DNA of 64,000 nucleotides from Lepidostoma basale (lineage: Eukaryota > Arthropoda > Insecta > Trichoptera > Lepidostomatidae). Below the pieces are notes generated by a model, which saw nothing but the letters and a program-made list of their open reading frames with translations, did no database searches and was not told the DNA's origin. The stretch is from contig JAHDVF020000001.1 in NCBI GenBank assembly GCA_022606425.2, forward strand, positions 868,001-932,000. The letters run 5' to 3'. How positions within the stretch are numbered: the first letter of the stretch is position 1; each line of letters starts with the position of its first letter. Shown here in pieces: positions 1 to 57,010 of this stretch. Both the position numbers and the translations under genes were made by a program.

Positions 1-63
1 TTAATAATTGATACTAAAAAAATAAAAAAAACACGGCATATGATTATATGATATTATAATTGA

Positions 64-103
64 TGCCAACTAGTTTTGCTTGGACCCAAGCTTCATCAGG
101 GCA
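64..103 (-). ncRNA. Hammerhead ribozyme-like motif, type I layout
   Basis: Read on the minus strand: helix I 5' strand TGCC, CTGATGA, helix II GCTTG/CAAGC, AAAAC, the palindrome CTAG for helix III, then TT and the helix I 3' strand GGCA, which pairs fully with TGCC. A second outer block (TTATA/TATAA) lies beyond an internal loop, as in natural hammerheads. G12 is A here (AAAA for GAAA), so this copy is probably weak or dead. Confidence 0.55.
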
Positions 104-145
104 GTATAACTTTTTTTTAAAATTATTTGTTGTTGTTGTTATACA

Positions 146-184
146 GCCCTGACGAAGCTTGGGTCCAAGCGAAACTAGTTGACA
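146..184 (+). ncRNA. Degenerate hammerhead-like motif
   Basis: Plus-strand partner of the motif at 64-103. CTGACGA (149-155), helix II GCTTG/CAAGC, GAAAC (171-175) and the CTAG palindrome are intact, but helix I has two mismatches. N7 of the hammerhead core tolerates any base, so CUGACGA is acceptable. Confidence 0.5.
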
Positions 185-190
185 TCAATT

Positions 191-620
191 ATAATAACCA
201 TACCGTGGTTAAATACAAAGTTTTTTATTTTATTTTATATTTTTAATGTCTTACCACAAAGTGAGTGCTTCATATGAAAATTTATTCTTTTTTCGTTTTT
301 AAATTCTGGTCGAAATAAATCTTTAGTCTGAGACCAATGACACGATTCATCAGGCTAATTTAAATCTATACCCACAAAAAGTTGCGCAGAACGCTAATCT
401 TTCCTTCGTGGAGGCAATCTTTGGAGAATCGGTTTCGAGAACAATTAATTATTGTGAATAATGTTTCGGGAGAAAATAACTCAGTATTCGCAATACAAAA
501 TAGAAAAACATCCACAAAACGCTATTGCGCACTTAACGGAAATTCAATCTTACTTTGTAATCATAATAATGTGCAATATGTACAGGTAATTCCGAGTTTA
601 TGAGAAAAAGATACAGGGGT
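191..620. other. AT-rich flank, no gene
   Basis: The only recognisable segment is about 250-285 (CACAAAGTGAGTGCTTCATA). It recurs near 31,385 and, altered, near 56,968, both beside hammerhead units, so it is probably part of the PLE terminal region. The short ORF at 382-603 resembles nothing I know. Confidence 0.4.
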
Positions 621-630
621 GATTTTTCGA

Positions 631-632
631 TT

Positions 633-672
<40 letters not shown>
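631..672. repeat. (CT)n microsatellite
   Basis: Uninterrupted CT dinucleotide run after TTTTCTCTTT. It creates the artificial RERERE-type peptide on the minus strand. Confidence 0.95.
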
Positions 673-674
<2 letters not shown>

Positions 675-751
675 GTGAAATGACGCTACAGACCAAATCG
701 AGCTTTGGCCTCCCACAACTTGTGCCTCCAACTCCACCACACCCTTTATGT

Positions 752-1165
752 AAGAATAAATGCTGTAGAAATGAGATCTCTATGACGAATGTGTAGTAAA
801 TCTGTATACGATAAAGTGTCAAATGCAAGTATAATAAGTGAATGCAGTGCGAATGAAAGCGCTGTGAACAAAATAATGAAAGGATCATTAAGTTGGTTAA
901 TACACGTGGAAAAAATGAATGAAGAAAGAATGGGGTAAAAGTATATGTTAACAATGTAAATGGAACTAGAAATATAGTGAGACCGAGGAAAACGTAGTTC
1001 GATCAAATAAATCAAATATTGAATATCGACAACGTGAGAAGTCGAAGAAGAATGCGTGCATGAGACACTATGTGTGAATGTTGAGGAATGAAGAGAAGTG
1101 TGTCTAGAAATAACAGTGTGGCAGTCCATTCTTTCTGGTTTACTCTTCGGGAAGACGGCGTGATG
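752..1165 (+). mobile_element. LINE-A fragment, badly decayed
   Basis: Matches the LINE-A C-terminal region from the RINAVEMRSLRRMCG segment to the 3' end, with many stops and frameshifts. The terminal GGCGTGATG is present but the tail is eroded. No intact reading frame. Confidence 0.75.
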
Positions 1166-1167
1166 TT

Positions 1168-2270
1168 AAATTAGTTTTTATTTATTTATAAAATCGCCTT
1201 TTATAAGAATTTCATTCTGTAAGAATGAATACGAATCTAGAAAAGTATATCAGAGAAAAAAAGTGTAATGATTCATCCTCTCTGTCTACCTCTTAATAAA
1301 TCGACGTGACGGTTAGGTTACGTTAGAAAAGGTTTTCAAAACCTTTATTTTAAAAATATACCGTTATAATGCAGTATGAGTATGCTTTCGAAAAATAGTC
1401 ATATTTAAATCTAAACAAATGTGAAATTATTTTAGTTTATGCGTGCGACGCCTACACTTCGTTAAGTCAGCATTGCCGCATTTGCAAATCGTGGTTCAGG
1501 AGAGTAATCTTCGATACCTATTCCTTGTCTGATGATATAATAGATCGCGTTTGATTTATCATTCCCTGCCTCCATTAACTCCGATTGGTTGGTTTGTGTC
1601 AGGTTTTTTATTGGTCGTATAAATAACACAACCATCAGGATACCTTTTTAATTATATAAAATATGTTTAAATGCGTTATTTATTATTATGTATCATCGTA
1701 AAAACTCTTATTTATGACGTAGACAAAATCTAATTTTATTTTTTTTGCACAAATTAGATACAACAAACATTTATCATTTAAGTGACTCATTTGGATACTT
1801 GTAATAATGACTATCAAATAGCATTTTGATAAAACAAATCGGTACTTTTGTGAAATTGAGTTAAATATGCAATCAGTATTATTTTTGCACACTTTATGTT
1901 TTGACAAAACGTTAGAGCTGTACTTTTTTTTTTTACATTTTTTATGTATTTTTTTTTATGTACAATTGCAATCAACCCCTATTTTTTTTAAATATATACA
2001 TATATTTTTTTTAATTTTAGTTACTGATATATCTTGTAGATAACTGTATGCTACGTAAATTGACATTTCAAATAAACAATTTGGAAAAAAAAAAAAAAAT
2101 TATAAATAATCAAAATTATGTAAAAATCTTATTTTAACTCTCCTGTAAAATTCATAAAAAAAGCAGTTGGTACCTTTTGCCAAATAGGTACCGAAATAAT
2201 AACATGTATAGAATAATCATAAAAGACAAAAATAATAATAATAATAAAACAATTTTATTTGTTTCTTGGA
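1168..2270. other. AT-rich stretch, no gene seen
   Basis: About 1,268-1,325 (CATCCTCTCTGTCTACCTC to GTGACGGTTAGG) is an eroded LINE-A 3' end. The rest is AT-rich, with poly-T at 1925-1934 and poly-A at 2083-2096. I see nothing else. Confidence 0.5.
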
Positions 2271-2274
2271 CAAT

Positions 2275-2530: not shown

Positions 2531-2589
2531 AAAATAATAACAATAATATAAAATCCACATTTAATATTAAATTTTAAGGATATTGTCCG

Positions 2590-2665
2590 TCCCCAGACAG
2601 GCGAAACATTTCATTCACATCAAATATAATAAAACTTCTTGAAAACATTTTCACACTTCTTGAAA
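2590..2665 (+). repeat. PLE arm (TGATAA class), split by LINE-A
   Basis: CAGGCGAAACATTTCATTC then AATATAATAAAACTTCTTG is the right arm of the common GCCTTAG-type unit. Its continuation (GCAGACGTTCTCATTCGTATTAATTATTTAA) lies at 3835-3885, beyond the LINE-A insertion. Confidence 0.6.
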
Positions 2666-4380: not shown

Positions 4381-4514
4381 CAGCTTTACTGGCTTCCTTC
4401 GTGCGTAACTTTATTTTATTTATTGTACATGTAATTAAATAATTCATCACTATTACTGCTAAAATTTAAAACACTGTTATAATATCACAATTTCTTTTTA
4501 TTCACTGAGAGTGT

Positions 4515-4556
4515 AGTGACATCTGTTTCGCCAACCGATGTAGGCATCATCAGTGG
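4515..4556 (-). ncRNA. Hammerhead ribozyme-like motif
   Basis: Minus strand: CTGATGA (4547-4553), helix II with TGCC..GGTTGGC (one side mutated), GAAAC (4525-4529), helix III ACA-GA-TGT and cleavage triplet GTC. All invariant core bases are present. Helix I pairing is poor near the core. Confidence 0.6.
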
Positions 4557-4604
4557 ATACAGTAAACTTCATTATATTCATTCATTATAATCAGTTTATT
4601 GTAA

Positions 4605-4648
4605 CACCTGATGATGCCAACATCGGTTGGCGAAACAGCTGTCGCGAC
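4605..4648 (+). ncRNA. Hammerhead ribozyme-like motif
   Basis: CTGATGA (4608-4614), helix II GCCAAC-ATCG-GTTGGC, GAAAC (4632-4636), self-complementary helix III ACAGCTGT and cleavage triplet GTC (4641-4643). The core is complete. Helix I pairs only partly (G-C, mismatch, G-C), so activity depends on how the outer strands pair. Confidence 0.65.
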
Positions 4649-4682
4649 ACTCTCAGTGAATAAAAAGAAATTGTGATATTAT

Positions 4683-4885
4683 AACTAACTAACTAACCAT
4701 CACGCCATCTCTCCGGAGGAGTAGGCAGAAATAATGGAACGCCACACTGTTCTATCCTGACATACTTCTATCGATTCCTCTACATTCATACATCTTGTCA
4801 TGCATCTTCACGCGACGGACATTTAATATTTTATTGATTTGATCGTGCCACGTTTTCCTCGGCCTTCCTCTATTTCTAGCTCCGT
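4683..4885 (-). mobile_element. LINE-A fragment
   Basis: Starts at the tail (TAACTAACTAACTAACC) and runs backwards through the 3' hairpin and the KTWHDQIN region to about RGR. Its tail abuts the hammerhead unit at 4685. Confidence 0.8.
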
Positions 4886-5763: not shown

Positions 5764-6010
5764 AACAATGATGCAAAACTCCATATTAAATTATTAATAT
5801 GAATGAAAACGTTAGTTTTCTTGAAGTTTTATTATATTAAATGTGAATGACATGTTTCGCCTGTCTAAGGCAGTTTCACATTTGATAGGTAACAATGTCC
5901 CATTTGATAATGCCTTAGAGAGGGGAAACATGTCATTCACATAAAACATAATAAAACATCTAGAAAAAGAATTATTAATTATTTAATATATTGAGTTTTA
6001 TACCATTCTT
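5764..6010. repeat. PLE-type inverted pair, TGATAA class
   Basis: Left arm 5790-5872 and right arm 5904-5985 are inverted copies containing GCCTTAG..AGGC stems, GAAACATGTCATTC and ATAATAAAACTTCTAGAAAA. The position of the hammerhead CUGAUGA reads TTGATAA on the right and GTGAAAC on the left, so the core is broken. The same broken core recurs at 28335, 32610, 54240 and 60550. Confidence 0.6.
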
Positions 6011-10690: not shown

Positions 10691-10724
10691 TGTTTGCTGC
10701 GAATATCATTTTTCCATCATCATT

Positions 10725-10900
10725 GACATCATCAGGTGTTACAATAAAACTGTTACCATAAAACTAGTGTTATTGTAACACCTGATGATGCCAACATCGG
10801 GTTGGCGAAACAGCTGTCGCGACACTCTCAGTGAATAAAAATAAATTGTGATATTATAACAGTGTTATAAATTTTAACAGTAATAATTTAGTGTTATATA
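10725..10900. repeat. Hammerhead unit, left arm truncated
   Basis: A short left arm (TCATCAGGTGTTACAATA) and a full right arm of the ATCGG class extend to ATATTATAACAGTGTTATAA. The left arm stops just before helix II. Confidence 0.6.
10779..10822 (+). ncRNA. Hammerhead ribozyme-like motif
   Basis: CTGATGA (10782-10788), helix II GCCAAC/GTTGGC with one extra loop G, GAAAC (10807-10811), ACAGCTGT and GTC. The core is complete. Confidence 0.6.
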
Positions 10901-12690: not shown

Positions 12691-12746
12691 TTTAATTTGA
12701 ATAACTTTTTGAAAACATTGTATTTTCACAACACTTTTTTGCACCT

Positions 12747-12794
12747 TTCATAAACATGTTTCGGGACACAGACTTCCCTTCTTCAGTGTATGAA
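12747..12794 (-). ncRNA. Hammerhead ribozyme-like motif, CUGAAGA class
   Basis: Minus: TTCAT (outer helix I), CTGAAGA (12780-12786), helix II GGGA/TCCC, GAAAC, ACATGT with T as H17, then ATGAA pairing with TTCAT. Every invariant position is kept. Confidence 0.6.
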
Positions 12795-12798
12795 TTAA

Positions 12799-13337
12799 CG
12801 AAGACGTCAATAGTCGTATCCACCAGACTAAACTTGCCTTCAACAAGAAAGCTTAAATATTCGAGTCCAATAACATAGACCTAAACCTCCGAAAATAACA
12901 AAAAAAAATTGGTGTGAAGTGTTTTACTGTGCGGTTGCGAGACTTGGTGCCTGGGCGAAAGAGAGTGCAAAAGGCTGGAGGCGTTTGAAATGTGGACCTA
13001 CCGACGAATTGCCCAGGTTTCATGGAGGGACCACGTTGCAAATGAGAAGGTTCTCAGCAGAGTTGAAGAGATTAGGCACATGTTGAACACCATAGTGGAG
13101 AGGCGCGCGAAATGGATTGGTCATGTGTTGTGGCACGAATGTTTCCTGCATGATGTATTGGAGGGAATGGTCGAGGGATCGATTGGCAGAGGACGACCTG
13201 CCAGGAGTACCTAGACCAGATTTGCCAAGATATGAGCTGCACTTCTTAGGCGGAGTTAAAGAGAGTTGCCGAGGACCGAGCGGATTGAAAAACTTTCTAC
13301 AGACCAATCTTTAGATTGAGACCGGAGAATAAGAAAC
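12799..13337 (+). mobile_element. LINE-B, 5'-truncated, nested in hammerhead unit
   Basis: Reads NSRIHQTKLAFNKKA, GCETWCLGERECKRLEAFEM, MWTYRRIAQVSWRDHVANEK and RRAKWIGHVLWHE..LHDVLEGMVEG, with frameshifts and stops. The same family is at 15,523-16,463. The 9-bp target duplication is exact. Confidence 0.85.
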
Positions 13338-13403
13338 ATGAATTAAAAGTATATATTAGTGCGAGTACGCACATATTAGCAGTTATTTGCTCAAATTCAT
13401 TGA

Positions 13404-13450
13404 TTCATACACTGAAGAAGCGAAGTCTGTGTCCCGAAACATGTTTGTGA
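13404..13450 (+). ncRNA. Hammerhead-like motif, helix II weakened
   Basis: CTGAAGA (13412-13418), GAAAC (13436-13440) and ACATGT. Helix II has GCGA opposite TCCC, so one base pair is lost compared with the partner arm. Confidence 0.5.
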
Positions 13451-13519
13451 AAGATGCAAAAAAGTGTCGTGAAAATACAATGATTTCAAAAAGTTATTTA
13501 AATGTGAATCCATTTTAAA

Positions 13520-14675: not shown

Positions 14676-14689
14676 GTAAATAATATACT

Positions 14690-14950
14690 TAGGAAATTGA
14701 AAAAAACTTTTTTTAATACATTTTTTTTTAAGTTAAAAAACACGACATGCTTCGGGGGATACCTCCATCTTTAGGTAAATTTATATTAAAAACTAAACAA
14801 GGATAATATAAAAAACTCATTTAAAATTCGGTACAATAATTTAAATTTAAAAATTGATCTGGGTTATTTGTTATAAGTACCTACTAATAATCATTTTTAA
14901 TCCTTAAGAACTAATAAATAACATGAAACGATAATAATACATGATGATAA
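14690..14950 (-). repeat. PLE-type repeat, GGAGG class
   Basis: Matches 53,770-54,230 over its length. A degenerate hammerhead (14,744-14,776, minus) has CTAAAGA, helix II GGAGG/CCCCC and GAAGC in place of GAAAC, so it is inactive. Confidence 0.6.
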
Positions 14951-20832: not shown

Positions 20833-21043
20833 CTTAGCGCGAGCCAAATCGATGTAAAGGGTATAGCTATCATTTCAATTCTTGTGACATGTGATAGGTA
20901 GCTAATCTATCGCCATTTTATTGTCACATGAATTCTGCACCAGAACAAAGCAATGTGACAATCACACTGCCATCGCCGGGAATCGAACCCGAAACCTTCG
21001 GGGTGGCAGTCAAAGCACTTACCACTTGGCCACGAAGGTCGTC
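20833..21043 (-). mobile_element. SINE1, CTTTACAT-tail subfamily
   Basis: Minus strand: A box TGGCCAAGTGGT, B box GGTTCGATTCC (read from 20,982 leftwards), complete body, and tail TATACCCTTTACATCGAT. Confidence 0.85.
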
Positions 21044-24171: not shown

Positions 24172-24420
24172 GACGACCTTCGTGGCAGAGTGGTTACGAG
24201 CTCTGACTTCCATGCCGAAGGTCCTGGGTTCGATTCCCGGCGATGGCAGTGTGATTGTCACACTGTCTTTAGTCTGGTGTAGAATTCACGTGACAATAAA
24301 ATGGCGATAGATTGGCTACCTATCGCATGTCACGAGAATCAATATAATAGCTAAAAAATAAAAATTGTTTACAGTAATTGGGTCCAAACGAGCTGTTGTG
24401 TACAAAAAAATAATATAATA
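24172..24420 (+). mobile_element. SINE1, best-preserved copy
   Basis: tRNA-derived SINE. A box TGGCAGAGTGG (24183-24193) and B box GGTTCGATTCC (24227-24237) form an internal pol III promoter. The body reads GTGTGATTGTCACACTGTC, TGGTGTAGAATTCACGTGAC, AATAAAATGGCGATAGATTG, then a tail with CAGTAATTGGGTCCAAACGA and TTGTGTACAA. No coding capacity. Mobilisation would need a partner LINE, and none of the LINE 3' ends here clearly matches its tail. Confidence 0.9.
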
Positions 24421-27976: not shown

Positions 27977-28334
27977 CCAGTATATACTCAATAATATTTA
28001 TAAATTCATTCAGAGCTAAAAAACATCCCTTTCCGTCATTCAGACAAGTATTCTAGAAATAAAAAAATAAAAACAATTATAGAAATTAAAAAGTCATCTG
28101 ATTGAAATAAGATAATTATTATAATTAGGTATAGAGATAATAAATTAAACATCATTCAAAGTATGCCAAGGAAATTAAATGCCTATTTTGCAAAGTGCAA
28201 AATTTATAATCTAATGTAGAATAATAGTTACAGTTTCTTGTTTTTCTTATCAGCAGTCACCATTTCTGAACTCTCCCAAAGCAGTGCAGATATATATTAA
28301 ACATTATTTTACTAATATAAATGAAAACGGCTGT
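27977..28334. other. No gene seen
   Basis: AT-rich. No family recognised. Confidence 0.35.
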
Positions 28335-28555
28335 CTTCTAGGAGTATTATTAAATTTGATATGGAATGACATTTTCGTCCTTCTAAGGCATTATTAAATG
28401 TTTCAATATCAAAACATTTGATAATACCTTAGAAAGGAATAAGGCCTCCATATAAAATTTAATAAAACTCCGAGAAGATAGACGTTTTTAATTACATTAA
28501 TTAATTAATATGGAGTTTTACACCATTGTTCAAGATACAATAAATCGTTAATTTA
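28335..28555. repeat. PLE-type inverted pair, TGATAA class, decayed
   Basis: Left arm with TTCTAAGGCATTATTAAATG and right arm with CATTTGATAATACCTTAGAAAGG, followed by the usual AATATGGAGTTTTAC flank. GAAAC is lost on both sides. Confidence 0.55.
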
Positions 28556-28623
28556 TTTATTTCTATTTTTATTTTTTATACACTTTGTATATACAACACT
28601 GATATTAAACAACAAATTATATA

Positions 28624-28657
28624 GGCATGATTCAGACAAACAGTCCTTCTTCAGTAA
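28624..28657 (-). ncRNA. Degenerate hammerhead-like motif in PLE 3' region
   Basis: Minus: CTGAAGA (28,648-28,654), helix II GGACTG/TGTCT-like, then GAATC in place of GAAAC. Same position relative to the GIY-YIG ORF as the intact motif at 52,093-52,131. Confidence 0.5.
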
Positions 28658-28825
28658 AGATCCATATTTATAAAAATATTTTTAAATTGTTGTTGTTTAC
28701 ATGATCTGACAGATGTTATAAAGATTTATTTTGGAAAGTTTATGTTTCTGTTATAACAAATATTATGATTCAATTTAAATTTTAAAAGAATAATTTAGAG
28801 TTCTAATTGGGGTTCAGGTAATAAC

Positions 28826-29282
28826 TTACAACAAAGGAAATAATTCAAAGATTGGACTTGACGTTAAATTTATTTGATTATTTATAATATTTTCTTTATT
28901 TTTAATAGCTTTTTTAATTTCTAAAATTTTGAGATTGCTCAAAGTTAAATTACTACTACTATGAACATGCAAAATTTCAACGCCCATATCATTATTAAAT
29001 AAATGATATTTTTTTATGAGGTGGTTAGCAAATTCAGAAAAAATATTATTAGAGAGACATCGTATGTGCTCTTATATTCTTAATTTAAAATAACGCCTTG
29101 TTTTACCAATGTAAAAAGATGAGCAATCATTACATTTCAGTTTATAAATCCCTGATTGAGAAAATTGATCTTCCATGTCTTTATTATATTTTATTAATTT
29201 ACCTAATTTATTGTTTTCATAAAACGCGGGTCTAATGTCACATGGGAGTTGTTTTGAAATTATATTTGTTAAATTATTAATA
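28826..29282 (-). pseudogene. PLE GIY-YIG endonuclease domain remnant
   Basis: About 152 codons in one frame: NNLTNIISKQLPCDIRPAF, DQFSQSGIYKLKCNDCSSFY, YIGKTRRYFKLRI, then a TAA, EHIRC, FSEFANHLIKKYH, EILHVHSSSNLTLSNLKILE and NNQINL. GIY..FYIG and the Cys pair CNDC are hallmarks of the Penelope GIY-YIG endonuclease. The RT domain is absent. One nonsense codon sits where the family usually has a residue before EH. The frame ends at TAA (28,826-28,828). Confidence 0.85.
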
Positions 29283-29404
29283 TATAAAAAATATTATTTA
29301 TATTATTATTGATGGGAGCTGGAGAATACAAGATTGCTTAAATAAATTTATTTTTGATTTTTCTTTTTAAAATATTATATATTAAATTATTACTGTAAAC
29401 ATTA

Positions 29405-31254: not shown

Positions 31255-31400
31255 TTAATTTTTTTTAAATACAAACATGTTTCGGACACAATCCCTTCAT
31301 CATTATTATAAATATTTTAACAATCTTTTTCATTAATGTAAGAACTTTATATTTATATTCATATATTTAAAATCTCTTATCACAAAGTGAGTGCTACATA
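31255..31400 (-). repeat. PLE-type unit with hammerhead-like motif
   Basis: Minus motif (31,270-31,305): ATGATGA at the CUGAUGA position, helix II GGGA/TGTCC-like, GAAAC, ACATGT. C3 is A, so it is inactive as written. CACAAAGTGAGTGCTACATATG at about 31,381 recurs at 250. Confidence 0.5.
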
Positions 31401-31944: not shown

Positions 31945-32180
31945 TTTTCAACTGTTAAAATTGTTATAATATCAAAAGTTTTATTATTAACATTTTTAGG
32001 GAGTGTTACGACAGCTATTTCACCGACCGATGTTGGCATCCTCGGGTGTAACAAACGACAAGTTGTTTGTAACACCTGAAGATTCCAACATCGGTTGGCA
32101 AAACATCTGTCTCAACACACTCAAAAAGTGAATATTAAAAATTGTAATATAATAAAAGTTTTATAAATTTTAAATGTAAA
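31945..32180. repeat. Inverted hammerhead pair, ATCGG class
   Basis: Left motif (minus, 32,008-32,048): CCGAGGA and GAAAT. Right motif (plus, 32,073-32,115): CTGAAGA, helix II CCAAC/GTTGG and AAAAC with GTC. Arms extend to AATATTAAAAATTGTAATAT. Both cores carry at least one damaging change. Confidence 0.6.
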
Positions 32181-32609
32181 TAATGCTGAAATATCAATGT
32201 GTTTCTGCCAAAGTAATAGACTGCTAAATAACAAAATACAAGTTGATGTAACAGGAAAAAGAAACACAACGAAAACGTGACAATAATAAGATTTGAGTGT
32301 TTTTAAATATTAAAACGAAATAAAAAAAAGCTCGATCTTAATAGCACTCAAATATAATTATTGAAAAGGTAGTGGGAACATGGAAACTCCTCGTGTCATC
32401 CCGTTTCCCGGCAAATGACAGTAGTGGGTGAGGCGAGACATTAGAGGAGTCGGAAGGGCGGCGTTCGGCGTAACTCGAGAATCGAAGACCACAGTTTACC
32501 ACTGCTGGATGGAGGCGAGGAATGCCCGCATCAGAAGGGATAGGGAACTGTCAGTGCAGGGATAAGGTGACAAGGTGCGTCAACTGGTATGCGCGTTATC
32601 AGTTGTAAA
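32181..32609. other. No gene recognised
   Basis: 32,370-32,590 is GC-richer (GGAGTCGGAAGGGCGGCGTTCG) but carries no recognisable coding block. Confidence 0.3.
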
Positions 32610-32835
32610 CAATACGAATGAAAACGTTTTTTTTCTAGAAGTTTTATTATAATTTATGGGAACGACATATTTCGCTTTTCTAAGGCATTATCATATGTCT
32701 TTGAAAGGCGAAACATGTCATTTCTATCAATTGAAATAAAATCTTTAGAAAGCAGATGTCTTCATTCTTATTAATTATTTTATGTGGAGTTTTACATCAT
32801 TGATCAAGAAACAATTAAGAATTTATACTTATAAT
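32610..32835. repeat. PLE-type inverted pair, TGATAA class
   Basis: TTTTCTAGAAGTTTTATTATA..ACATATTTCGC..CTAAGGCA on the left and GAAAGGCGAAACATGTCATT on the right, then GGAGTTTTACATCATTG. The CUGAUGA position reads TATCATA. Confidence 0.6.
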
Positions 32836-34475: not shown

Positions 34476-35160
34476 CTACAATACTCGGGCGTATCTCGGG
34501 CGGTGAGTCCTTCGTCGTTGGGTCGTCTTTAGCTGCTGTGGGGCGCCTCCTGGAGCGCCGGGGGCGGTCGCGAGTGGAGAGGTGGTCGGCGTCTCTGGCT
34601 CCGGCTGGAACACTGCGACTCGGACAGCAGGTCGTATGTATTTCCTGCTGCTGGTCTGGACCGCTACGGTCCGTGTCTGGCCGTCAGCTGCCGGGGTGGC
34701 CTCGACGACCCATCCGCGTGGCCATGTGTTCCGTGGCAGCGATGGGTCGGTGAGCAGCACTAGGTCCCCCACCTTGATGGGTGGGCGCTGATGGTGCCAC
34801 TTCTGCCGATTGCCGATGGTTGGAATGTATTCCCGGAACCAGTGTCTCCAGAAGCCGTCCGCGAGCTGCTGGCTGATGCGCCATCGCTCGCGCAGACAAG
34901 CATCTGGTTTGCCCTTCGCCTGGCGTGTGAGGTGCGGTTGCCTCGAGGCTCTCCCCATCAGGAAATGGTTGGGGGTCAGCGGCTCTTCGTCCTGCGGGTC
35001 CAGTGCGACGTGGGTCAGGGAGCGATTGTTGACGGTGTGCTCCACCTCTGCTAGTGCGGTCAGCAAAGTCCAGCCGCATGTCCTGTGGCTCCTCTTCCTG
35101 CCGTAGTGCCAGAGGTGTCTCATGACTCGTCGTGCCCTGCGAACCACCGCAGGCGAGCCA
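34476..35160 (-). pseudogene. Integrase C-terminal remnant (DUF5641)
   Basis: Minus strand, frame different from gag-protease. VMRHLWHYGRKRSHRTCGW, EVEHTVNNRSLTHVALDPQD, LTPNHFLMGRASRQPHL, RERWRISQQLADGFWRHW, then REYIPTIGNRQKWH, VGDLVLLTDPSLPRNTWPRG and VRVAVFQPE. This is the BEL/Pao integrase tail with its terminal DUF5641 domain. The integrase core with its Asp/Glu residues is absent. The upstream ORF start at 35,237 reads protease DNA out of frame. The junction lies at about 35,130-35,170. Confidence 0.85.
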
Positions 35161-38100
35161 GCCAAGCGCCGTCCGTAATTTGATGGATTCGCCTGGCCTT
35201 TCCACTCCACCACTCCAATCCACTTCTCGGGAGACAATCAGGTGAGCGTTGTCCATCCCGATTAGCAGGCGTGGGCGGACAAGTTCTCCGCTGCTGAGTA
35301 ACTGCTCGGGGAGGTTCAGCTTTCGGATTGTGCGGGCGTTGATGGTGTATGACCGGCCCTCGGCGCTGCGGATGCCAACCTGCACGAGTCGAGCTTGCGT
35401 CTCTGCGTGGCATGGTCCTAACGCCCCGTGCAAGTGGAGTGTCTGGAGCGTTCCGCTTGTCTTGGCGCCGATTCTTTTCGCTGTTCCAGCGTCAATCAGC
35501 GTCAGCGTTGATCCTTCATCCAGGAGGGCGTGAGCGGGTTCTGTGCCATCTGGGCCGCTGATTTCTATTTCTACGACTTTCAGGAGGATGCTTGATGATG
35601 GACTCGTTATATGTGCGACCGTCTCTGTGGCGGTTCTGGGTCTGTGCAGGAGGGCATGATGGTTCCCTCCGCATCCCTCGGCGGCACATACTTTCGTGCA
35701 CTGACCTTTGTGGAAGGAGAGGCACCGAGCGCAAGCGCTCGTCATCTTGATCAGTTTCCATCGTCGTTTGATGTCACTGGCTGAGAATTCGGGGCACTGC
35801 TTCATCATGTGCTGAGGAGAGTAACAGACTGCGCATGCGCCCCTGATATCCTTTCTGGTTGGCTCGTCAGGATGTTTTTTTGCTAGTGGCGCTTGCTGCG
35901 GTACATCGTATGTGGTGTGTACCGTAGCGTGCCGATCCCGTCCTGTTTGGGATCTTCCTTTCACTGCGCAGCCACCGTGGGTCATTCCGTTCATGATCTG
36001 CCGGAGGAAGTCTGCGAAGTGGTGGACGGTAACGGGTGCCGCAATCTGGTTGGCGACCCATACCCACATCACCCGAAACATGAGTGGCAGTTTCGAGGTC
36101 ATGTCGTTCAGTAGTGACGGGTGGCCGAGGTAGTCCACTGGCAGGAGCTTCAGCGATGCCACCATGTTCTGCACAGCTAGGCAGAAGTCCACAAGCTGCT
36201 CGTTGGTGCTGGTGTCCATCAGGGATGGCAACTTCCGCACCTTCTCCAGCATCAGTGTAGCGATGGCGTTTGGGTCCCCGAAGCGGCGTCCAAGCACATC
36301 AATGATGAAAGGCACTTGTGATGGCTGGAGCAGGAGGGTTGCTACGGCCTCCCGGGCCCTCCCAGTGAGGGCGCGCTGCAGTCGGAGGAGATTCTCGGCA
36401 TTGGTCATCCCGCAGGTGGCGGTTGACTGCTGGAACTGAGCGTGCCAGGACGGCCACTCGAGAGGATCGCCAGAGAAATTCGGCAGGTCCTTTCCTAGGG
36501 TCTGCCGAGCCATGAAGGTCGCCATTTGATGTCCCTGCTCCGCAGACATCTGAGATGAGTGGTTGCGTGCGCCTAGGAGCGCCTCTGTCATCAGTGCGGC
36601 TAGTTGGGCGATGGGCTCCGATCCTGGAGCGCGTCCTGCTCCCGGCGCGTTATCCGTGGTGGGGGTATCAGCAGGTGGCCCCTGCCACCCGCCGTTTGCG
36701 GCTGCTGTGCTCGTGGAGGCGGCAGGTCCCCACTGCGTGCTGCCCAGCGCCAGGCCCTGCAGGCCGGCTGCTGGAGCGGCGTTGTATGCATTGATTGGCT
36801 GCCACGGCGTGCCGCCCGGCGCCAGGCCCTGCAGGCCGGCCGCTGGAGCGGAGCTGGTGACATTGATTGGCTGCCACGGCGTACCGCCCGGCGCCAGGCC
36901 CTGCAGGCCGGCCGCTGGAGCGGAGCTGGTGACATTGATTGGCTGCCACGGCGTACCGCCCGGCGCCAGGCCCTGCAGGCCGGCCGCTGGAGCGGAGCTG
37001 GTGACATTGATTGGCTGCCACGGCGTACCGCCCGGCGCCAGGCCCTGCAGGCCGGCCGCTGGAGCGGAGCTGGTGACATTGATTGGCTGCCACGGCGTAC
37101 CGCCCGGCGCCAGGCCCTGCAGGCCGGCCGCTGGAGCGGAGCTGGTGACATTGATTGGCTGCCACGGCGTACCGCCCGGCGCCAGGCCCTGCAGGCCGGC
37201 CGCTGGAGCGGAGCTGGTGACATTGATTGGCTGCCACGGCGTACCGCCCGGCGCCAGGCCCTGCAGGCCGGCCGCTGGAGCGGAGCTGGTGACATTGATT
37301 GGCTGCCACGGCGTACCGCCCGGCGCCAGGCCCTGCAGGCCGGCCGCTGGAGCGGAGCTGGTGACATTGATTGGCTGCCACGGCGTACCGCCCGGCGCCA
37401 GGCCCTGCAGGCCGGCCGCTGGAGCGGAGCTGGTGACATTGATTGGCTGCCACGGCGTACCGCCCGGCGCCAGGCCCTGCAGGCCGGCCGCTGGAGCGGA
37501 GCTGGTGACATTGATTGGCTGCCACGGCGTACCGCCCGGCGCCAGGCCCTGCAGGCCGGCCGCTGGAGCGGAGCTGGTGACATTGATTGGCTGCCACGGC
37601 GTACCGCCCGGCGCCAGGCCCTGCAGGCCGGCCGCTGGAGCGGAGCTGGTGACATTGATTGGCTGCCACGGCGTACCGCCCGGCGCCAGGCCCTGCAGGC
37701 CGGCCGCTGGAGCGGAGCTGGTTGGCTGCCCTCTGTATCCACTGTTGATATTCTCCCACAGCGATCCACTGTGAGAGAGATGATCGGTGCCTCTGGCTGG
37801 ATACATGTCGTAGGACGGCAATCCACCGTCCTTTGCGGGATCTGCACATCCCCACTGCGCGCCGCTGGGTGGCGGGTCTCCTCGACCGGCCGCCGGCTCG
37901 CCAAAGTGAGGTTGCTTCCCTTGTTGGTGTCCACTGGTCAGCGTGGAATATGTGGACTGCAGTAGCTGCTGTGGAGGACTGGGCTGGGCCGGCAATGCTC
38001 CGGCTTTAGTCGTGGTCCCCTGGAGCAGCAGCGAGGCCTGAAGCTGCTCAATGCGTCGGTCAAAGGCGAGCCGCTGTGATCGCAGCTCGCTGCGCAGTAA

Positions 38101-42424: not shown

Positions 42425-42600
42425 AAATTACTTTGTTTCTGTATCACAATTATATTTTATTTTACGCGACAGCTGTTTCATCAACCTATGTTGACATCAT
42501 CAGGTGCTACAATAATATATCAACTGACAAATTTTCTAATTTTGCGGTTCTTGCTGAAAATTAGTAAGGTACCTAAATATTTTAATTAAAAGAACGGTTA
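42425..42600. repeat. Hammerhead unit, single arm
   Basis: The left arm of the ATCGG class (GTATCACAATTATA to TCATCAGGTGCTACAAT) is present. The right arm is replaced by AACTGACAAATTTTC. Confidence 0.55.
42465..42506 (-). ncRNA. Hammerhead ribozyme-like motif, complete core
   Basis: Minus: CTGATGA (42,497-42,503), helix II TCAAC-ATAG-GTTGA, GAAAC (42,475-42,479), ACAGCTGT and GTC. Compared with the 4,605 motif, helix II has changed on both strands but still pairs. Confidence 0.65.
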
Positions 42601-43668: not shown

Positions 43669-43796
43669 TATGTCATACGACCTAAACTAAGAGGAAGAAG
43701 AAGAAGAAGAAAATATTTTTTTCTAACATACTAAATATCAAATCTGACTACATGAATTTAGAATATTTTTTAATATGTATGCAATTGTTTATATTT

Positions 43797-43834
43797 GCAC
43801 TGATGAAGGGTTTCTCTGTCCCGAAATATGTTTT
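43797..43834 (+). ncRNA. Hammerhead ribozyme-like motif
   Basis: CTGATGA (43,800-43,806), helix II GGG/CCC with a 10-base loop, GAAA (43,823-43,826), then TATGTT. C15.2 is T, weakening helix III. Flanked by a poly-T run and by TTGTGTCAAAAAGTTAAAAA, related to the 12.7 kb class. Confidence 0.5.
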
Positions 43835-43910
43835 TTTTTTTCAATAAAATGTTGTGTCAAAAAGTTAAAAACACTTTTTTTTACTTTGCATACAAACACA
43901 TTTTTAAACA

Positions 43911-52010: not shown

Positions 52011-52027
52011 AGAACAAATAATAAATA

Positions 52028-52565
52028 TTTTTCTTTTTCTTTTTTATATACTTTGTATATACAACTAACTAAATTTTTTTTTTACTTTACAAATCAGACA
52101 TGTTTCGGACAACCGGTCCTTCCTCAGTGATATTATAAAGATACATATTTCAAATATTATAAAATTGTTTACAAATTTGATCAGTTTGGACGGATGTTAT
52201 GAAGATTTATTTTGGAACGTTTATGCTTTTGTTAGAACAAATATTATTAATCAATCAAAAATAATATGGTTCTTATTGGGGTTCAGGTAATTACTTACAA
52301 CAAAGGAAATAAATCAATGATTGGACTTAAATTTATTTGATTATTTATATTATTATTTTTATTTTAAATAGCTGTTTTAATTTCTGAAATGTCGAGATTG
52401 CTCAAAGTTATATTTTTATTATTAACATGCAAAATTTCAATGCCATTATCTTTATTAAATTAATGATCTTTTTCAATGAGGTGGTTAGTAAATTCAAAAT
52501 AAAAATTCTAATTAAAGTTAGTGTTGTATTATATATACTAAGTATATAAAAAAGAAAAAGACAAA
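52028..52565 (-). mobile_element. Penelope-like element 3' fragment with hammerhead
   Basis: Flanked by inverted TTTTTATATACTTTGTATAT and ATATACTAAGTATATAAAAAAG. The minus strand encodes the tail of the GIY-YIG protein (FTNHLIEKDH, GIEILHVNNKNITLSNLDIS, NNQINL..DLFPLL then stop), aligned to 28,826-29,050. It is followed by a UTR and the hammerhead at 52,093-52,131. Coding part decayed. Confidence 0.8.
52093..52131 (-). ncRNA. Hammerhead ribozyme, best candidate
   Basis: Minus: helix I ATCA (four pairs with TGAT, 52,093-52,096), CTGAGGA (52,121-52,127), helix II GGAC-CGGTT-GTCC, GAAAC (52,102-52,106), helix III A-C-AT-G-T, cleavage triplet GTC (C17 at 52,097). Every invariant base is present and three helices can form. 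The 2-bp, 2-nt-loop helix III suggests action as a dimer, as described for PLE and satellite hammerheads. Confidence 0.75.
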
Positions 52566-52639
52566 TAAAACATCTACAACACAAAGTATGGCGTACATAG
52601 AATAAATAATAAATACATTAAAACATCAAAATATTATAA

Positions 52640-53177: not shown

Positions 53178-53769
53178 TTTATTATTCATCTTGCTGTGGA
53201 AACGGGTTGATGATTATTTAGTTCGTTATATTAATAATCGTGCAATATTGATTTATATTTCTTATTCTTTTATTAAGTTTTCGAATGATATGATCATCTG
53301 GAAACTTCAAGAATTTTTTGAATATGTAAAAATACGTTTTAAAACGTTTGCGATACGAAATTTTAATTAATTTTCCTGAAACAGAAGAGCATTATCTTGC
53401 TGTTTTTATTTAGGGCAATAAATTATGTCGACCAGCCGGTTATCCTTCATTTCTCATAATAAAAAGAGGAACACAGTTTGGGCTGCAGGAATTTTGATGG
53501 CATTATTCCCAAACACCAAATCACATAAACAACTAAGAAATATTTTAATAAAACGAAGATAGAAACTATTCCGTTCCATTATGTCAGAGTGCCCGAGGTT
53601 GTCCGCCCTGTCGACTATAGAGGGGCTTGCAAATGATGCATGGCTGACTTTAAAAGACCTAATCAATTTTTTAAATGGTTTGTTTAAGCATATTAAATAT
53701 AAACCTGTACAAATTTCAGTAAAAATTTATTTTTCTACACGGGTTTCGAAAAAAAAAAACATATTTTCT
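53178..53769. other. No gene recognised
   Basis: 53,575-53,680 is less AT-rich with an ORF on each strand but no motif. Otherwise empty. Confidence 0.3.
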
Positions 53770-53830
53770 ATTATACTTAGGAAATTGAAAAACTTTCTTT
53801 TTCCCCTATTTAAAAAAGTAATTAAAAAAT

Positions 53831-53866
53831 ACGACATGTTTCGGAGGATACCTCCATCTTCAAGTG
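53831..53866 (-). ncRNA. Hammerhead-like motif, C3 changed
   Basis: Minus: TTGAAGA, perfect helix II GGAGG-TAT-CCTCC, GAAAC, ACATGT, GTC. Only C3 (T here) departs from the consensus; that change normally abolishes cleavage. Confidence 0.55.
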
Positions 53867-53901
53867 TAAAAATATAATAAAAACTAAACAAAGAAAAACT
53901 A

Positions 53902-54088
53902 TACGTCAATGATGTAAATGGAACCAGAAATAGAGGAAGACCGAGGAAAACGTGGCACGATCAAATAAATCAAATATTGAATGTCGGCCATGTGAAAAAG
54001 AAAAGTGAAAAGAAAGAAAAGTGTGGCAGTCCATTCTTTCTGCCTACCCCTTCGGGGAGACGGCGTGATGGTTAGTTAGTTAGTTAGT
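53902..54088 (+). mobile_element. LINE-A, short insertion with 13-bp duplication
   Basis: VNDVNGTRNRGRPRKTWHDQ..ILNVGHV then a deletion to the CCATTCTTTCTGCC hairpin end and (TTAG)n. Target duplication as given for the enclosing repeat, one mismatch. Confidence 0.85.
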
Positions 54089-54239
54089 CAAAGAAAGACT
54101 AATAAATAACGCATTTAAAATTCGATACAATAATTCAAATTTTAAAATTATCTTGTGTTATTTGTAATAAGTAGGTACTAACAATTATTTTTTAACAGTA
54201 AGAACTAATAAAAAATCATAAATAATAATAATACATTAT

Positions 54240-54375
54240 GATTAACAGTAACGAGCTGAAATTTTGTAACATTTGATAATGCCTTAGAAGGGCGAAACAT
54301 GTCATTCCCATAAAATATAATAAAACTTCTAGAAAACTGACGTTTCCGTATTAAATAATTTTCATTCGTATTAAT
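54240..54375 (+). repeat. PLE arm, TGATAA class
   Basis: TTTGATAATGCCTTAGAAGG, GCGAAACATGTCATTC, TATAATAAAACTTCTAGAAAA, ending with ATTCGTATTAATTAT. Only the right arm is present. Confidence 0.6.
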
Positions 54376-54409
54376 TATAAAATAAATTGTTCATTTAATC
54401 TTACCTTAA

Positions 54410-55690
54410 TAACTAACTAACGATCACGCCATTTTCAGAAAGGTTAGGCAGAGAGAATGGTCCGTCATACTTATCTGTCACTCAACAACAACAACAAAAA
54501 CAACAAACCATCACGCCGTTTCCCCGCAGGGGTAGGCAGAGAGAATGGACCGCCACACTACTCTATCCTGGCACACCTCTCTAGCTTCCTCCACATTCAT
54601 ACATCGAGTCATACACGCACGTCGATTCTTCCGGCTTCTGACATGACCAACTTTTAATATTTGGTTAATTTGGTCATGCCATGTTTTCCTCGGTCTACCT
54701 CGACTCCTTACTCCATTTACATTGTTAACGTATACTTTTTAACCATTCTTTCTTCACCCATGCGCTCCATATGTCCGAACCAACGAAGCGAACCTTTCAT
54801 AATTTTGTTCATAATACCTTCTTTCGCTCTACACTCCTTCCTAATATCAGCATTTGAGATTCTGTCGTACATCGTTCTACCACACATACGTCTTAGGGAC
54901 CTCATCTCTACCGCATTTATTCTGCTCTCATCTTTCTTCTGCCAGTTCCATGCTTCGCTTCCATACATAAGGGTTGGAACCAGAACTCCATTGTGAACGG
55001 CCATTTTCGCTTTCATTGATAAATTCTTGTTTCCAATAACTACTTTTAAAGCTCCATTCACTTTGTTACCCGCACCAACCCTTCTTTCAATATCACTGTC
55101 CGTTCGGCCATCCGCTGTGAACATGCTACCTAAATACACAAATTCGCTCACCTGTTCCAAGTTCTCTTCATTTACACTTATATTACAAACTGTCATTTGC
55201 TCTTCCCTTTCAAAAACTAACACCTTTGACTTTCGGACATTCATCATTAAATCGTTTGACTTGCATACCTTATACATTCTCGACACCAAGACTTGTAATT
55301 CTAACTATCCGCAACGAGAACGGCATCGTTCGCGTAAAGCAGACAGTTTACAGACAGATCACTCATCTTAGCACCAGTATTTATACCTTTAAGTTCTTTC
55401 ATACACTTGTCCATATACAGATTGAACAACCAAAGGGACATCACGCAGCCCTGCTTAACACCCTTCGTGATATCAACCCAGGGCGTGATGTCCCCATTTA
55501 CCCTAACACTGGCAGTGCTCCCTTCGTAGAGAGAAGCAACCGCCCGTATCAGTTTTGTGCTCACTCCGTATTCGGACAAGATTGATCACAGTTTTTCTCT
55601 GTTCACTTTGTTCTCTGTTCACTGTCACTCAAGTTTCCTCTACATTCATACATCGTAACACGAACGTTCGTCGATTTTTCAAGGAAAATA
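54410..55690 (-). mobile_element. LINE-A (outer copy) hosting another LINE-A
   Basis: 54,410-54,485 (tail, hairpin, QDR region) and 55,622-55,690 (antisense of the RCMNVEE/RRNIDERS block) join into one 3' fragment once the inner copy is removed. CTGTCACTCAA is duplicated at 54,475-54,485 and 55,622-55,632. Confidence 0.8.
54486..55621 (-). mobile_element. LINE-A, (GTT)n-tail subfamily, inner copy
   Basis: Exact 11-bp duplication. The minus frame reads EYGVSTKLIRAVASLYEGST, VKQGCVMSLWLFNLYMDKCM, YAND (YADD mutated), a frameshift near 55,300, then MYKVCKSNDLMMNVRKSKV through RWFGHMERMGEERMVKK, a one-base loss near 54,737, and RGRPRKTWHDKINQIL to SAYPCGETA. Confidence 0.88.
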
Positions 55691-55694
55691 TTTG

Positions 55695-56216
55695 TGTGTT
55701 GGAGTAACAGAGTTTCGATAATTATTATGTATCAGAAAATTTATAATCATCCGGTGAAATCTTTGTTGGAAGGGTGTGCCACACATCAGATAACATCCAT
55801 TGGTAAGAATATCAAGGCGTTGAAATTATGCAAACACATAAAGGCAAAGTAATTTGCGTGCGGTGACACTCACACATACGAGCGGGGGCTATTCTTGATT
55901 GTCTACCTCATTTAAATACGAAATTTATTACTTGGTTTGTATCGGAATGCATCTCATTTATTTTATAGTTTCGTGTAAAATCGAATACAAAATTACTACC
56001 AATAAAATCTATGAATAAAAATGTTTTAAAGATCACTAAAACAATGAAAACCGAAGCCATCTAAAATGTTTAATATCGAAACACTTTGAAATTTCATAAT
56101 CAAATCTCTATTACAATGTTCATTGGTTTAGAAAAAGATATCATTACCTGTATAATTTAAAATACTTAAACACAAAAATACTTTTTTTATAAAATCGTGG
56201 TGACAAACCTAACTTT
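55695..56216. other. No gene seen
   Basis: Unassigned AT-rich sequence. Confidence 0.35.
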
Positions 56217-56377
56217 ACCAAAATCGATCCTCCTTCAGATGACTACGCAAACCAAGCCGCCATGTAAATTAACAACTCACCAAACTAACATTTGAACAAT
56301 GATTCCAATAGACGTGAGAGGAATAGCCACAAGAACTGAACATCCGTAAGCCGAAAGATCTTAGTCCAAGTTTCCCC
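56217..56377 (+). mobile_element. Jockey-like 3' remnant
   Basis: CCAAAATCGATCCTCCTTCAG, GACGTGAGAGGAATAGCCAC, AGCCGAAAGATC align with 53,007-53,155. Confidence 0.7.
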
Positions 56378-56539
56378 TCTTTCATTGTTATGATCATTTG
56401 TATGTATTTTCTCTTAACATTATTATAAGAATCTTCACGTGTTTTATTACACCTAAGACCGATCATAATAATAAGTTTTCCAATCCATGTAAATAAAGTC
56501 TGGAGATGGAGAGACTAGATGTTTATCTCCAGATGGGTG

Positions 56540-56700
56540 CCACGTTAAAAGAGACCAAGAAACAGAACAAGAATACGATGAGGGGATTGCGTGTAAGACC
56601 ACTGAAAGAAACTAGAAAGACCTGGAAAATTGAGAGAAATAGCCAAGGACAGGAGCGAGTGGATAATATCCACACCGAAATGTAGCCCCGAGAAGAAGAA
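56540..56700 (+). mobile_element. LINE-K 3' remnant
   Basis: LREIAKDRSEWIISTPKCSP then EKKNF and (AAT)n: a DR..W C-terminal motif as in other LINE ends. Confidence 0.5.
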
Positions 56701-56724
56701 TTTTAAATAAAATAATAATACACT

Positions 56725-57010
56725 TTTAGTAATTTGTATCTACACCACTTTATTTGGTAACACTAACCGGTTACGCTCCCGCCGGAGCTTCGTCAGGGTG
56801 AGAAAGTAAACTAAATATAAAATCAGAGAACATCATATGAATAAAGAAATATAAAATGGAGGGGAGAAAGAAGGGTAGGAGAAAGTGGACGAATAGAATG
56901 CTAGAACGGTGAGTCATGCTCATTAGGGAAATTACCAAAAGTGTATTATTATTTTTTTCAATAATGTCACACCACAAATTTAGTGCTTCATACGAAAGTT
57001 TAGAAGAATT
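56725..57010. repeat. PLE-type inverted unit with hammerhead-like motif
   Basis: CACTTTTAGTAATTTG (56,727) and ATTACCAAAAGTG (56,933) are inverted. The minus motif at 56,763-56,800 has CTGACGA, helix II GCTCC/GGGAGC, GTAAC for GAAAC, ACCGGT and T as H17. Same helix II class as 58,455. A13 to U would inactivate it. Confidence 0.55.

What the first reader, a model, noticed from the sequence alone, without database searches (positions are those of the whole stretch)
61..56800. A family of short inverted-repeat units each built from two opposed hammerhead-ribozyme motifs
At least 15 sites read CUGANGA, helix II, GAAA, a tiny palindromic helix III (CATG, CAGCTG, CTAG or CCGG) and UH. Several pair as minus-motif, 50-65 bp spacer, plus-motif within inverted arms of 50-110 bp (61, 4473, 12695, 31945). 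Helix II sequences differ between classes (GCTTG, GCCAAC, GGGA, GGAC, GGAGG, GCTCC) yet still pair, so structure rather than sequence is kept. Hammerheads in Penelope-like elements are known. Opposed pairs mean that a transcript from either strand carries a sense ribozyme, which I have not seen described for such compact units.
Basis: partly seen in the sequence, partly recalled or inferred. Interest (0 to 1): 0.88.

Follow-up and report, generated by a model that had tools for sequence, protein, structure and literature searches.

The report
Head-to-head Penelope retroelement pieces with hammerheads
The paired inverted ribozyme motifs are broken, back-to-back copies of a very abundant retroelement (Penelope-like) that carries a small hammerhead ribozyme; the arrangement was described before, but this genome holds a very large natural record of how such copies form and how the ribozyme core varies.

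Summary
The motifs are real. In 64 kb, 8 exact-core motifs with helix II (one probably spurious) stand against 0.17 per shuffle. The genome (769 Mb) holds 17,686 exact CATG-type motifs, reversed-pattern control 0.

They are the hammerhead of Penelope-like elements (PLEs): a GIY-YIG endonuclease frame lies upstream, a frame start lies downstream in 20 of 79 copies, and RT-endonuclease relatives abound in the genome.

Opposed pairs are head-to-head, 5'-truncated PLE copies: of 79 motifs, 40 have an inverted partner upstream and 1 downstream. Junctions differ; 13 of 33 units close on a 3-11 nt loop. The 3' tail sits on one arm in 20 of 33 units, on both in none. A few units have target-site duplications. 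Inverted pLTRs, one-sided tails and palindromic junctions are in print (PMC3846280), so the arrangement is not new.

Two features stand out: one extra base between CUGANGA and helix II (5,787 against 5 without, for one helix), and massive C3-G8/U3-A8 covariation. Whether compact units cleave is doubtful: they fold into long hairpins.

The parts
52..196 (.). Head-to-head unit, class A (helix II GCTTG/CAAGC, helix III CTAG); arms 52-110 and 138-196
   Evidence: 93% complementary arms; a second copy C1:1540534-1540678 aligns over nearly the whole unit at 81.5%
68..99 (-). Hammerhead-like motif with AAAA in place of GAAA (probably dead)
149..180 (+). Hammerhead-like motif CTGACGA-A-GCTTGGGTCCAAGC-GAAA-CTAG-TT
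4440..4685 (.). Head-to-head unit, class B (helix II GCCAAC/GTTGGC, helix III CAGCTG)
   Evidence: 91% complementary 93-nt arms; 4476-4685 folds as one hairpin, -139.5 kcal/mol
4608..4643 (+). Class B hammerhead-like motif
10723..10900 (.). Class B unit with a nearly complete right arm and a truncated left arm; plus motif at 10782-10818
12695..13503 (.). Head-to-head unit, helix II GGGA class; arms 12695-12802 and 13396-13503 around 593 nt
12747..12792 (-). Hammerhead-like motif with stem I
   Evidence: covariance model E 1.8e-9
13406..13451 (+). Hammerhead-like motif with stem I
   Evidence: covariance model E 1e-7
14738..14780 (-). Single motif, GGAGG class, decayed
   Evidence: covariance model E 2.6e-5; pLTR similarity 14679-14812
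28549..29390 (-). 5'-truncated PLE copy: endonuclease frame fragment 29290-28832, then a decayed motif 28660-28618, then the pLTR end
   Evidence: tblastn 70.6% over 153 aa, E 8.6e-65; model E 2.8e-8; sequence; outer bounds by eye
31268..31309 (-). Single motif with core ATGATGA
   Evidence: model E 4.9e-8
31963..32193 (.). Decayed class B head-to-head unit
42465..42515 (-). Class B motif, single
43794..43838 (+). Single motif (CTGATGA...GAAATATG)
   Evidence: model E 1.1e-8
52017..52620 (-). PLE copy: inverted pLTR fragment (about 52503-52620), endonuclease end 52489-52301, motif 52133-52091, pLTR end; the 12-nt word TATTTATTATTT is seen by eye at both ends
53754..53901 (-). pLTR piece, GGAGG class, motif 53869-53827 with core TTGAAGA
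5807..5967 (.). Head-to-head pair of the UUGAUAA (U3-A8) class, GCCTT helix II; further similar pieces at 28325-28487, 32622-32759, 54240-54345, 59916-59985, 60546-60599 and 62822-62893, several with a mutated core

Best explanation
The motifs are the hammerhead of the pseudo-LTR (pLTR) of Penelope-like retroelements. The order read along an element is: endonuclease end, stop codon, hammerhead, about 60-100 nt, start codon of the next copy. A copying event starts reverse transcription just inside the reading frame (the 'tail'), runs back through the hammerhead, and often stops early. In about half of the sampled copies the new strand then folds back or is self-primed and is copied again from its own truncated end. 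That leaves two arms joined head to head, with the hammerheads pointing outward. Supported by sequence: the PLE context, the head-to-head bias, junctions that differ from unit to unit, near-perfect palindromes in many units, the one-sided tail, and a few target-site duplications. Inferred: that fold-back priming makes the second arm. The opposed ribozymes are therefore a by-product of insertion. The ribozyme is a trait of the parent element; its self-complementary ACAUGU stem III suits cleavage as a dimer (the 2017 title by Lunse and others says PLE hammerheads cleave as dimers; title seen in a reference list only).
For: PLE: the L031 palindrome encodes a GIY-YIG domain before the motif (Pfam E 7.3e-5). 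The window has two endonuclease fragments upstream of motifs on the same strand. A homologue carrying YVDD and GIY-YIG finds 117 scored places in the genome, best E 5.1e-119, open frames up to 873 aa. Arrangement: 40 of 79 motifs have an inverted partner upstream, 1 of 79 downstream, 4 of 79 a direct partner. Neighbours within 1 kb: 7 -/+, 1 +/-, 0 same-strand of 100 listed; 6, 1 and 4 of 100; 14, 0 and 1 of 100. Exact cores 20-50 nt apart head to head: 873 strand matches, control 0. Independent junctions: arm alignments start 0-574 nt upstream of the core in 33 units; 40 of 40 spacers differ. Palindromes: 13 of 33 units (32 folded) form one hairpin that closes on 3-11 nt; 31 compact spacers are 76% complementary end to end against 35% shuffled. 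Arms share one template: helix II and loop identical in 11 of 14 pairs, chance mean 2.7. Tail: on one arm in 20 of 33 units, on both in 0, on neither in 13, 0 hits in 66 reversed flanks. Repeats of 11 nt or more at both ends of 5 of 33 units against 0.7% in mismatched flanks.
Against: A plain fold-back copy of the whole first strand should carry the tail on both arms; it does so in none of the 20 units where a tail is seen (P about 0.02 if the arms were independent). 19 of 32 folded units have larger or unequal interiors, which fits joining of two separately primed strands as well. Short loops in compact spacers are not evidence: shuffled spacers give loops of 10 nt or less in 78% of cases (observed 26 of 31). 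Only 8 of 33 units have a terminal repeat of 9 nt or more (null 5.9%), and two of the five longest are simple sequence (ACTAACTAACT, AAAAATAAAATT). 37 of 79 motifs have no partner. Class A could not be tied to a reading frame. No RNA or activity data were available.
Confidence: 0.9

Rival explanations
1. One reading: compact units with two opposed ribozymes are a functional design kept so that transcripts of either strand self-cleave.
For: Both strands of a unit do carry a sense motif by geometry; stem I and the 3-8 core pair covary, so the element's ribozyme looks constrained.
Against: Units fold as long hairpins (-89 and -139.5 kcal/mol against -12 and -18 for the motif regions alone). Spacers and arm starts are not conserved. 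37 of 79 motifs have no partner nearby. One arm can be mutated (window -99).
Confidence: 0.05
2. The units are MITEs: DNA transposons with long terminal inverted repeats moved by a transposase.
For: Long inverted arms, compact size; the class A unit aligns over nearly its whole length to one other copy, 81.5% over 146 columns.
Against: Arms end in PLE endonuclease sequence and in an element frame start. The 3' tail is asymmetric. Candidate TSDs vary in length. Junctions differ in every unit sampled.
Confidence: 0.04
3. Same PLE origin (a sub-question of the best explanation), but the two arms come from twin priming: both target strands prime reverse transcription on PLE RNA near its 3' end and the two strands are joined at their inner ends, without fold-back copying.
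For: Explains why only one arm has the tail and why 19 of 32 folded units have unequal or large interiors. The Anolis PLE protein acts on both target strands in vitro (PMC11167929, passages read, one of them cut off).
Against: Two separately primed strands should rarely stop at the same base, yet 13 of 33 units have equal arms within 11 nt, and compact spacers are 76% complementary end to end against 35% shuffled.
Confidence: 0.3
4. The motif is only a conserved DNA or RNA structure of the pLTR and no longer, or never, a cleaving ribozyme (also compatible with the PLE origin).
For: Rfam hammerhead models do not see it in the window; a fixed extra base in the core strand; in 25 of 33 units the shared arm runs 53-79 nt past the motif and in the other 8 at least 10 nt, so the copied RNA was not cleaved there.
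Against: The other conserved core positions are kept, and 93% of 38,194 motifs keep a 3-8 Watson-Crick pair; stem I covaries.
Confidence: 0.25

Closest known systems
Penelope retroelements of Adineta vaga (PMC3846280; start of abstract, passages)
   Same: Inverted pLTR next to direct pLTR, head to head; palindromes at the inverted junction, read by the authors as self-priming; optional short 'tail' (31 bp there) on one of the inverted pLTRs; pLTR reaches into the first codons of the reading frame; TSD of 8-10 bp.
   Different: Low copy number there; tens of thousands of motifs here; truncation often leaves only the pLTR part. The word hammerhead has 0 occurrences in that paper's main text.
Anolis Poseidon element PAc (PMC11167929; passages read)
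   Same: GIY-YIG PLE with a hammerhead at the pLTR-ORF junction; reverse transcription starts internally, in an AC-rich stem loop; unprocessed RNA is the main template.
   Different: Described there as tandem repeats; I saw no head-to-head units in the passages; its ribozyme showed no cleavage without protein.
Minimal type I hammerheads of PLEs and Terminons (PMC6155905, PMC7229834; passages read; Lunse 2017 seen as a title only)
   Same: Short or absent helix III, few tertiary contacts, PLE location.
   Different: Here one extra base after CUGANGA is nearly universal. I could not check whether the published PLE hammerheads have it; the sequences are not in the text I could read.
Natural hammerheads with U3-A8 (PMC3088659, section 8 read)
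   Same: The same compensated core pair.
   Different: 'Several' examples there; 17,745 exact matches here, mostly one helix II family in the 100 listed.
Metazoan retrozymes (PMC7229834; abstract and passages read)
   Same: Non-autonomous repeats of about 170-400 nt with type I hammerheads, PLEs named as strong candidates for their mobilisation; an axolotl form has a palindromic tetraloop and works better as a dimer.
   Different: Retrozymes are described as direct tandem repeats; these units are inverted and truncated.

Membership tests
Penelope-like element (PLE) | Reverse transcriptase and GIY-YIG endonuclease in one frame | tested here: met
   P0004 (YVDD by eye, GIY-YIG) matches over residues 1-345 with open frames up to 873 aa in this genome; the endonuclease end adjoins the motif. 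RT and motif were not read in one single copy.
Penelope-like element (PLE) | Direct and inverted pLTRs, partial tandems | tested here: met
   Head-to-head 40 of 79; protein matches 2,954-2,961 bp apart in direct repeat on C308, C499, C502 and 12 inverted neighbour pairs on 11 contigs, by eye
Penelope-like element (PLE) | Optional one-sided tail | tested here: met
   20 one-sided, 0 two-sided, 13 none of 33; 0 of 66 reversed flanks
Penelope-like element (PLE) | Target-site duplication of variable length | tested here: inconclusive
   Repeats of 11 nt or more at 5 of 33 (null 0.7%), two of them simple sequence; 9 nt or more at 8 of 33 (null 5.9%); no empty sites examined
Hammerhead ribozyme | Core CUGANGA, GAAA, A15.1-U16.1, GUH | tested here: met
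   built into the search pattern, so the count, not the match, is the evidence
Hammerhead ribozyme | Stems I and II pair; stem I covaries | tested here: met
   60 double changes against 31 (sd 4.3) shuffled; covariation 0.398 against 0.202; slid structures at most 0.150. Helix II pairs 1-3 do not exceed shuffles, pair 4 does
Hammerhead ribozyme | Helix II directly follows CUGANGA | tested here: not met
   One extra base: 5,787 against 5; 63 of 64 motifs with a helix of 3 bp or more. [quoted passage not shown]
Hammerhead ribozyme | Rfam score above the cut-off | tested here: not met
   No hammerhead hit in the window at E<=10; 1 doubtful hit in the genome, 73 of 94,533 candidates scored
Hammerhead ribozyme | Self-cleavage | not testable with these tools
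   No bench data
MITE / DNA transposon | Fixed TIR ends and fixed TSD length, unit copied whole | tested here: not met
   Asymmetric tail, candidate TSDs of 9-14 nt, 40 of 40 spacers differ
Retrozyme | Direct tandem units with a hammerhead at each boundary | tested here: not met
   Direct partner in 4 of 79

The most novel reading that the evidence does not exclude
The palindromic stem III (ACAUGU) of the PLE hammerhead serves mainly to hold two PLE RNAs or nascent strands together at the pLTR, and this pairing, rather than cleavage, sets up the self-primed second strand that makes head-to-head units. The fixed extra base after A9 would mark a slow, dimer-dependent hammerhead subclass tuned for this, and the hairpin units would be natural sources of double-stranded RNA against the element.
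Probability: 0.1. Interest if true: 0.8.

Novelty: new member of a known kind. Interest (0 to 1): 0.5.

Why it matters
How PLEs make head-to-head inverted copies is open; PMC3846280 offers self-priming on an antisense template as an inference and asks for experiments. This one genome holds hundreds of exact compact junctions (873 strand matches in one spacer range) and probably many more decayed ones, with one-sided tails, so models of priming can be tested by counting. The tens of thousands of core sequences, with a 3-8 base-pair swap and a fixed extra base, are also a large natural mutagenesis set for the hammerhead core. Rfam's models miss the class in the window, so its abundance in animal genomes may be underestimated.

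Tried and rejected
Rejected: microRNA precursors. Rfam gives miRNA-family matches on the hairpins (MIR6217 72 bits against a cut-off of 110, mir-964 34.3 against 100), both below cut-off; I read them as reflecting the hairpin, not homology.

Rejected: the one Rfam hammerhead hit reported in the genome (L001, 38.7 bits) as a canonical example; the alignment needs a 72-nt insertion in loop II, and the locus is itself an inverted repeat.

Rejected: chance. Shuffles, the reversed-pattern control, and 53 exact pattern matches in IMG/VR of which 7 have helix II of 4 bp or more, all in the canonical register.

Rejected on its control: short loops at the centre of compact units. One search gave 36 of 40 with loops of 10 nt or less, but shuffled spacers do so in 78% of cases, so I count only that the spacers differ and that they are end-to-end complementary.

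Led nowhere: helix II covariation at the first three pairs is not informative. The IMG/VR pattern scan gave no motif in the +1 register with a helix II of 4 bp or more. The paper that would settle the extra base (PMC5785218) is not held. PF01541 in the own genome did not complete.

Selection to know of: 79 of the 100 places listed were analysed; 21 were not fetched. One of 40 inverted-partner motifs gave no arm alignment; 39 reduced to 33 distinct units. One search used 40 of the 100 rows listed (plus strand, not cut off; I left out two such rows by oversight); one search typed 29 of those 40 spacers plus the two left out. The tail search allows 6 edits in 27 letters; one of the 20 motif hits lies at 186 nt and at least one other lacks a clear ATG. 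The 3-8 table is dominated by few families, so its copies are not independent events; one search counts come from segments chosen for C3-G8 motifs. Wherever I say 'by eye' no script checked it.

Full report
The finding. The window is a 64-kb piece (G000:C1:868001-932000) of a 769-Mb genome in 1572 contigs; the species is not given. Of 10 open frames given to Pfam, 3 match a reverse transcriptase, 1 matches DUF5641 and 6 match nothing.

Is the motif there? Yes. CTGANGA, a helix II of at least 4 bp and GAAA occur 8 times with an exact core (one probably spurious), against 0.17 per Markov-shuffled window; with one core mismatch it is 14 against 5.3. But a covariance model that I trained on 37 motifs from outside the window finds 8 in the window at E<1e-4. 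The pattern CTGANGAN{9,25}CGAAACATGTY has 17,686 matches in the genome and none when read backwards.

What kind of RNA? All parts of a type I hammerhead are present. Stem I pairs and covaries: 60 double changes against 31 (sd 4.3) in shuffles, covariation score 0.398 against 0.202, and at most 0.150 when the partner is slid. Related copies inflate such numbers, but stem I differs between families (for example ATATCA/TGATAT, TTACAC/GTGTAG, TTTCTC/GAGAAA). Helix II is paired but its first three pairs are too constant to be informative. The core pair 3-8 swaps: C-G 17,686, U-A 17,745, U-G 1,412, C-A 1,351, so 93% keep a Watson-Crick pair. In the 100 rows listed the U-A copies are mostly one helix II family (GCCTT) with a second (GGTTA) among them, so this is a few events and many copies. 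U3-A8 in natural hammerheads is already reported (PMC3088659, section 8).

Two departures. First, helix II starts one base later than in the textbook core: 63 of 64 motifs with a helix of 3 bp or more; CATG 56 of 57, CAGCTG 7 of 7 and CTAG 2 of 2 with 4 bp or more. Genome-wide for the GGAC/GTCC helix it is 5,787 with and 5 without the extra base. Hammerheads on viral contigs found with the same pattern have no extra base (7 of 7 with a helix of 4 bp or more, of 53 matches). [quoted passage not shown] Second, helix III is the six-base palindrome ACAUGU; a monomer can form only one pair with a CAUG loop, so two strands would pair much better than one.

What carries it? L031 is a near-palindrome of about 1.56 kb whose inner part encodes a GIY-YIG domain that ends shortly before the motif. 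In the window, endonuclease fragments lie upstream of motifs on the same strand at 29290-28832 and 52489-52301. After the motif, 20 of 79 copies have a close match to ACAACACAAAGTATGGCGAACATAGAA, the start of a reading frame, 19 of them 76-109 nt on, and then the flank begins. A homologue with YVDD and GIY-YIG in one chain matches 117 scored places (of 5,959 first-look candidates), with open frames of up to 873 aa. This is the anatomy of a PLE: pLTR with hammerhead, reading frame start inside the repeat, internal start of reverse transcription (PMC11167929, PMC3846280, passages read).

Why opposed pairs? Of 79 motifs, 40 have an inverted partner upstream within 1.5 kb, 1 has one downstream, 4 a direct one, 37 none. 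Three listings of 100 places each repeat the bias. In one search, by eye, 12 pairs on 11 contigs are minus then plus within about 5 kb, and I saw none plus then minus. Exact head-to-head cores 20-50 nt apart give 873 strand matches, many sites counted on both strands, control 0. The units do not look like copies of one unit: arm alignments start 0 to 574 nt upstream of the core, and 40 of 40 spacers differ. Helix II plus loop is identical between the two arms in 11 of 14 pairs against 2.7 by chance, so both arms most likely come from one template. In 13 of 33 units (32 folded) the arms run as one hairpin to within 3-11 nt of each other, and 31 compact spacers are 76% complementary end to end against 35% when shuffled. 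Loop size itself proves nothing, since shuffled compact spacers also close on short loops. The tail is on one arm in 20 units, on both in none, on neither in 13, and the tail search finds nothing in 66 reversed flanks; three further units of the GGAGG class show another frame start on one arm, by eye. Direct repeats of 11 nt or more flank 5 of 33 units, 0.7% expected from mismatched flanks, but two of the five are simple sequence. Class B of the window follows the same plan, with differing spacers and, by eye, a tail on one side; class A has differing but similar spacers and no visible frame.

Mechanism. Supported: one insertion gives two arms of one template, head to head, one arm longer at its 3' end. 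Inferred: reverse transcription starts at the tail, stops early, and the strand folds back at a few bases and is copied. PMC3846280 infers self-priming from the same pattern and prefers an antisense template. The missing tail on the second arm does not follow from simple fold-back; either copying stops before the tail or the second arm is primed at the other target strand. Twin priming explains the tail but not the equal arms. Both may occur.

Does the ribozyme matter here? The shared arm runs 53-79 nt past the motif in 25 of 33 units and at least 10 nt in the rest, so the copied RNA was not cleaved at that motif. PMC11167929 likewise suggests that unprocessed RNA is the main template. In compact units the motif is predicted to be locked in a long hairpin. 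So the opposed pair is best seen as a scar of insertion. The sequence evidence for constraint on the ribozyme concerns the parent element.

Novelty. PLE hammerheads, head-to-head pLTRs, one-sided tails and U3-A8 cores are each in print. My searches (listings, with passages of only a few papers opened) showed no paper that ties opposed hammerheads to the head-to-head junction, but the library lacks most subscription journals, including the main PLE hammerhead papers, so absence is not shown. I therefore file it as a new member of a known kind, with an unusual, possibly undescribed, fixed extra base.

Noticed in passing
window 5904, 54273; many copies elsewhere in G000: A hammerhead-like class whose core is UUGAUAA, i.e. 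C3-G8 replaced by U3-A8; as abundant genome-wide as the C3-G8 form (17,745 exact matches).
   Followed up: partly
L074, L089, L092, L094, L096, L099, L119 (IMG/VR): Seven viral contigs carry nearly the same canonical hammerhead (CTGAAGAGTCTTAAAGATAGACGAAACATGTT or one change from it), perhaps one phage family.
   Followed up: no
window 36730-37722: A 72-bp tandem repeat, 13.8 copies, 98% matches, inside a 1293-aa open frame on the minus strand, next to a DUF5641 match at 34476-35237; local GC is 67%.
   Followed up: no
G000:C308:2096130-2108000: Nested PLE arrangement: two minus matches 2,954 bp apart followed by two plus matches 2,954 bp apart, with frames of 831-861 aa.
   Followed up: no
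G000:C1:1464007, 1464276, 1464545: Three U3-A8 motifs in direct repeat at 269-bp spacing, a possible retrozyme-like tandem.
   Followed up: no
window 24176-24248 and 20968-21039: ARAGORN calls a tRNA-Gly (TCC) and a second odd tRNA-like sequence; the second is just under Rfam's tRNA cut-off (27.3 against 29 bits). Possibly SINE heads.
   Followed up: no
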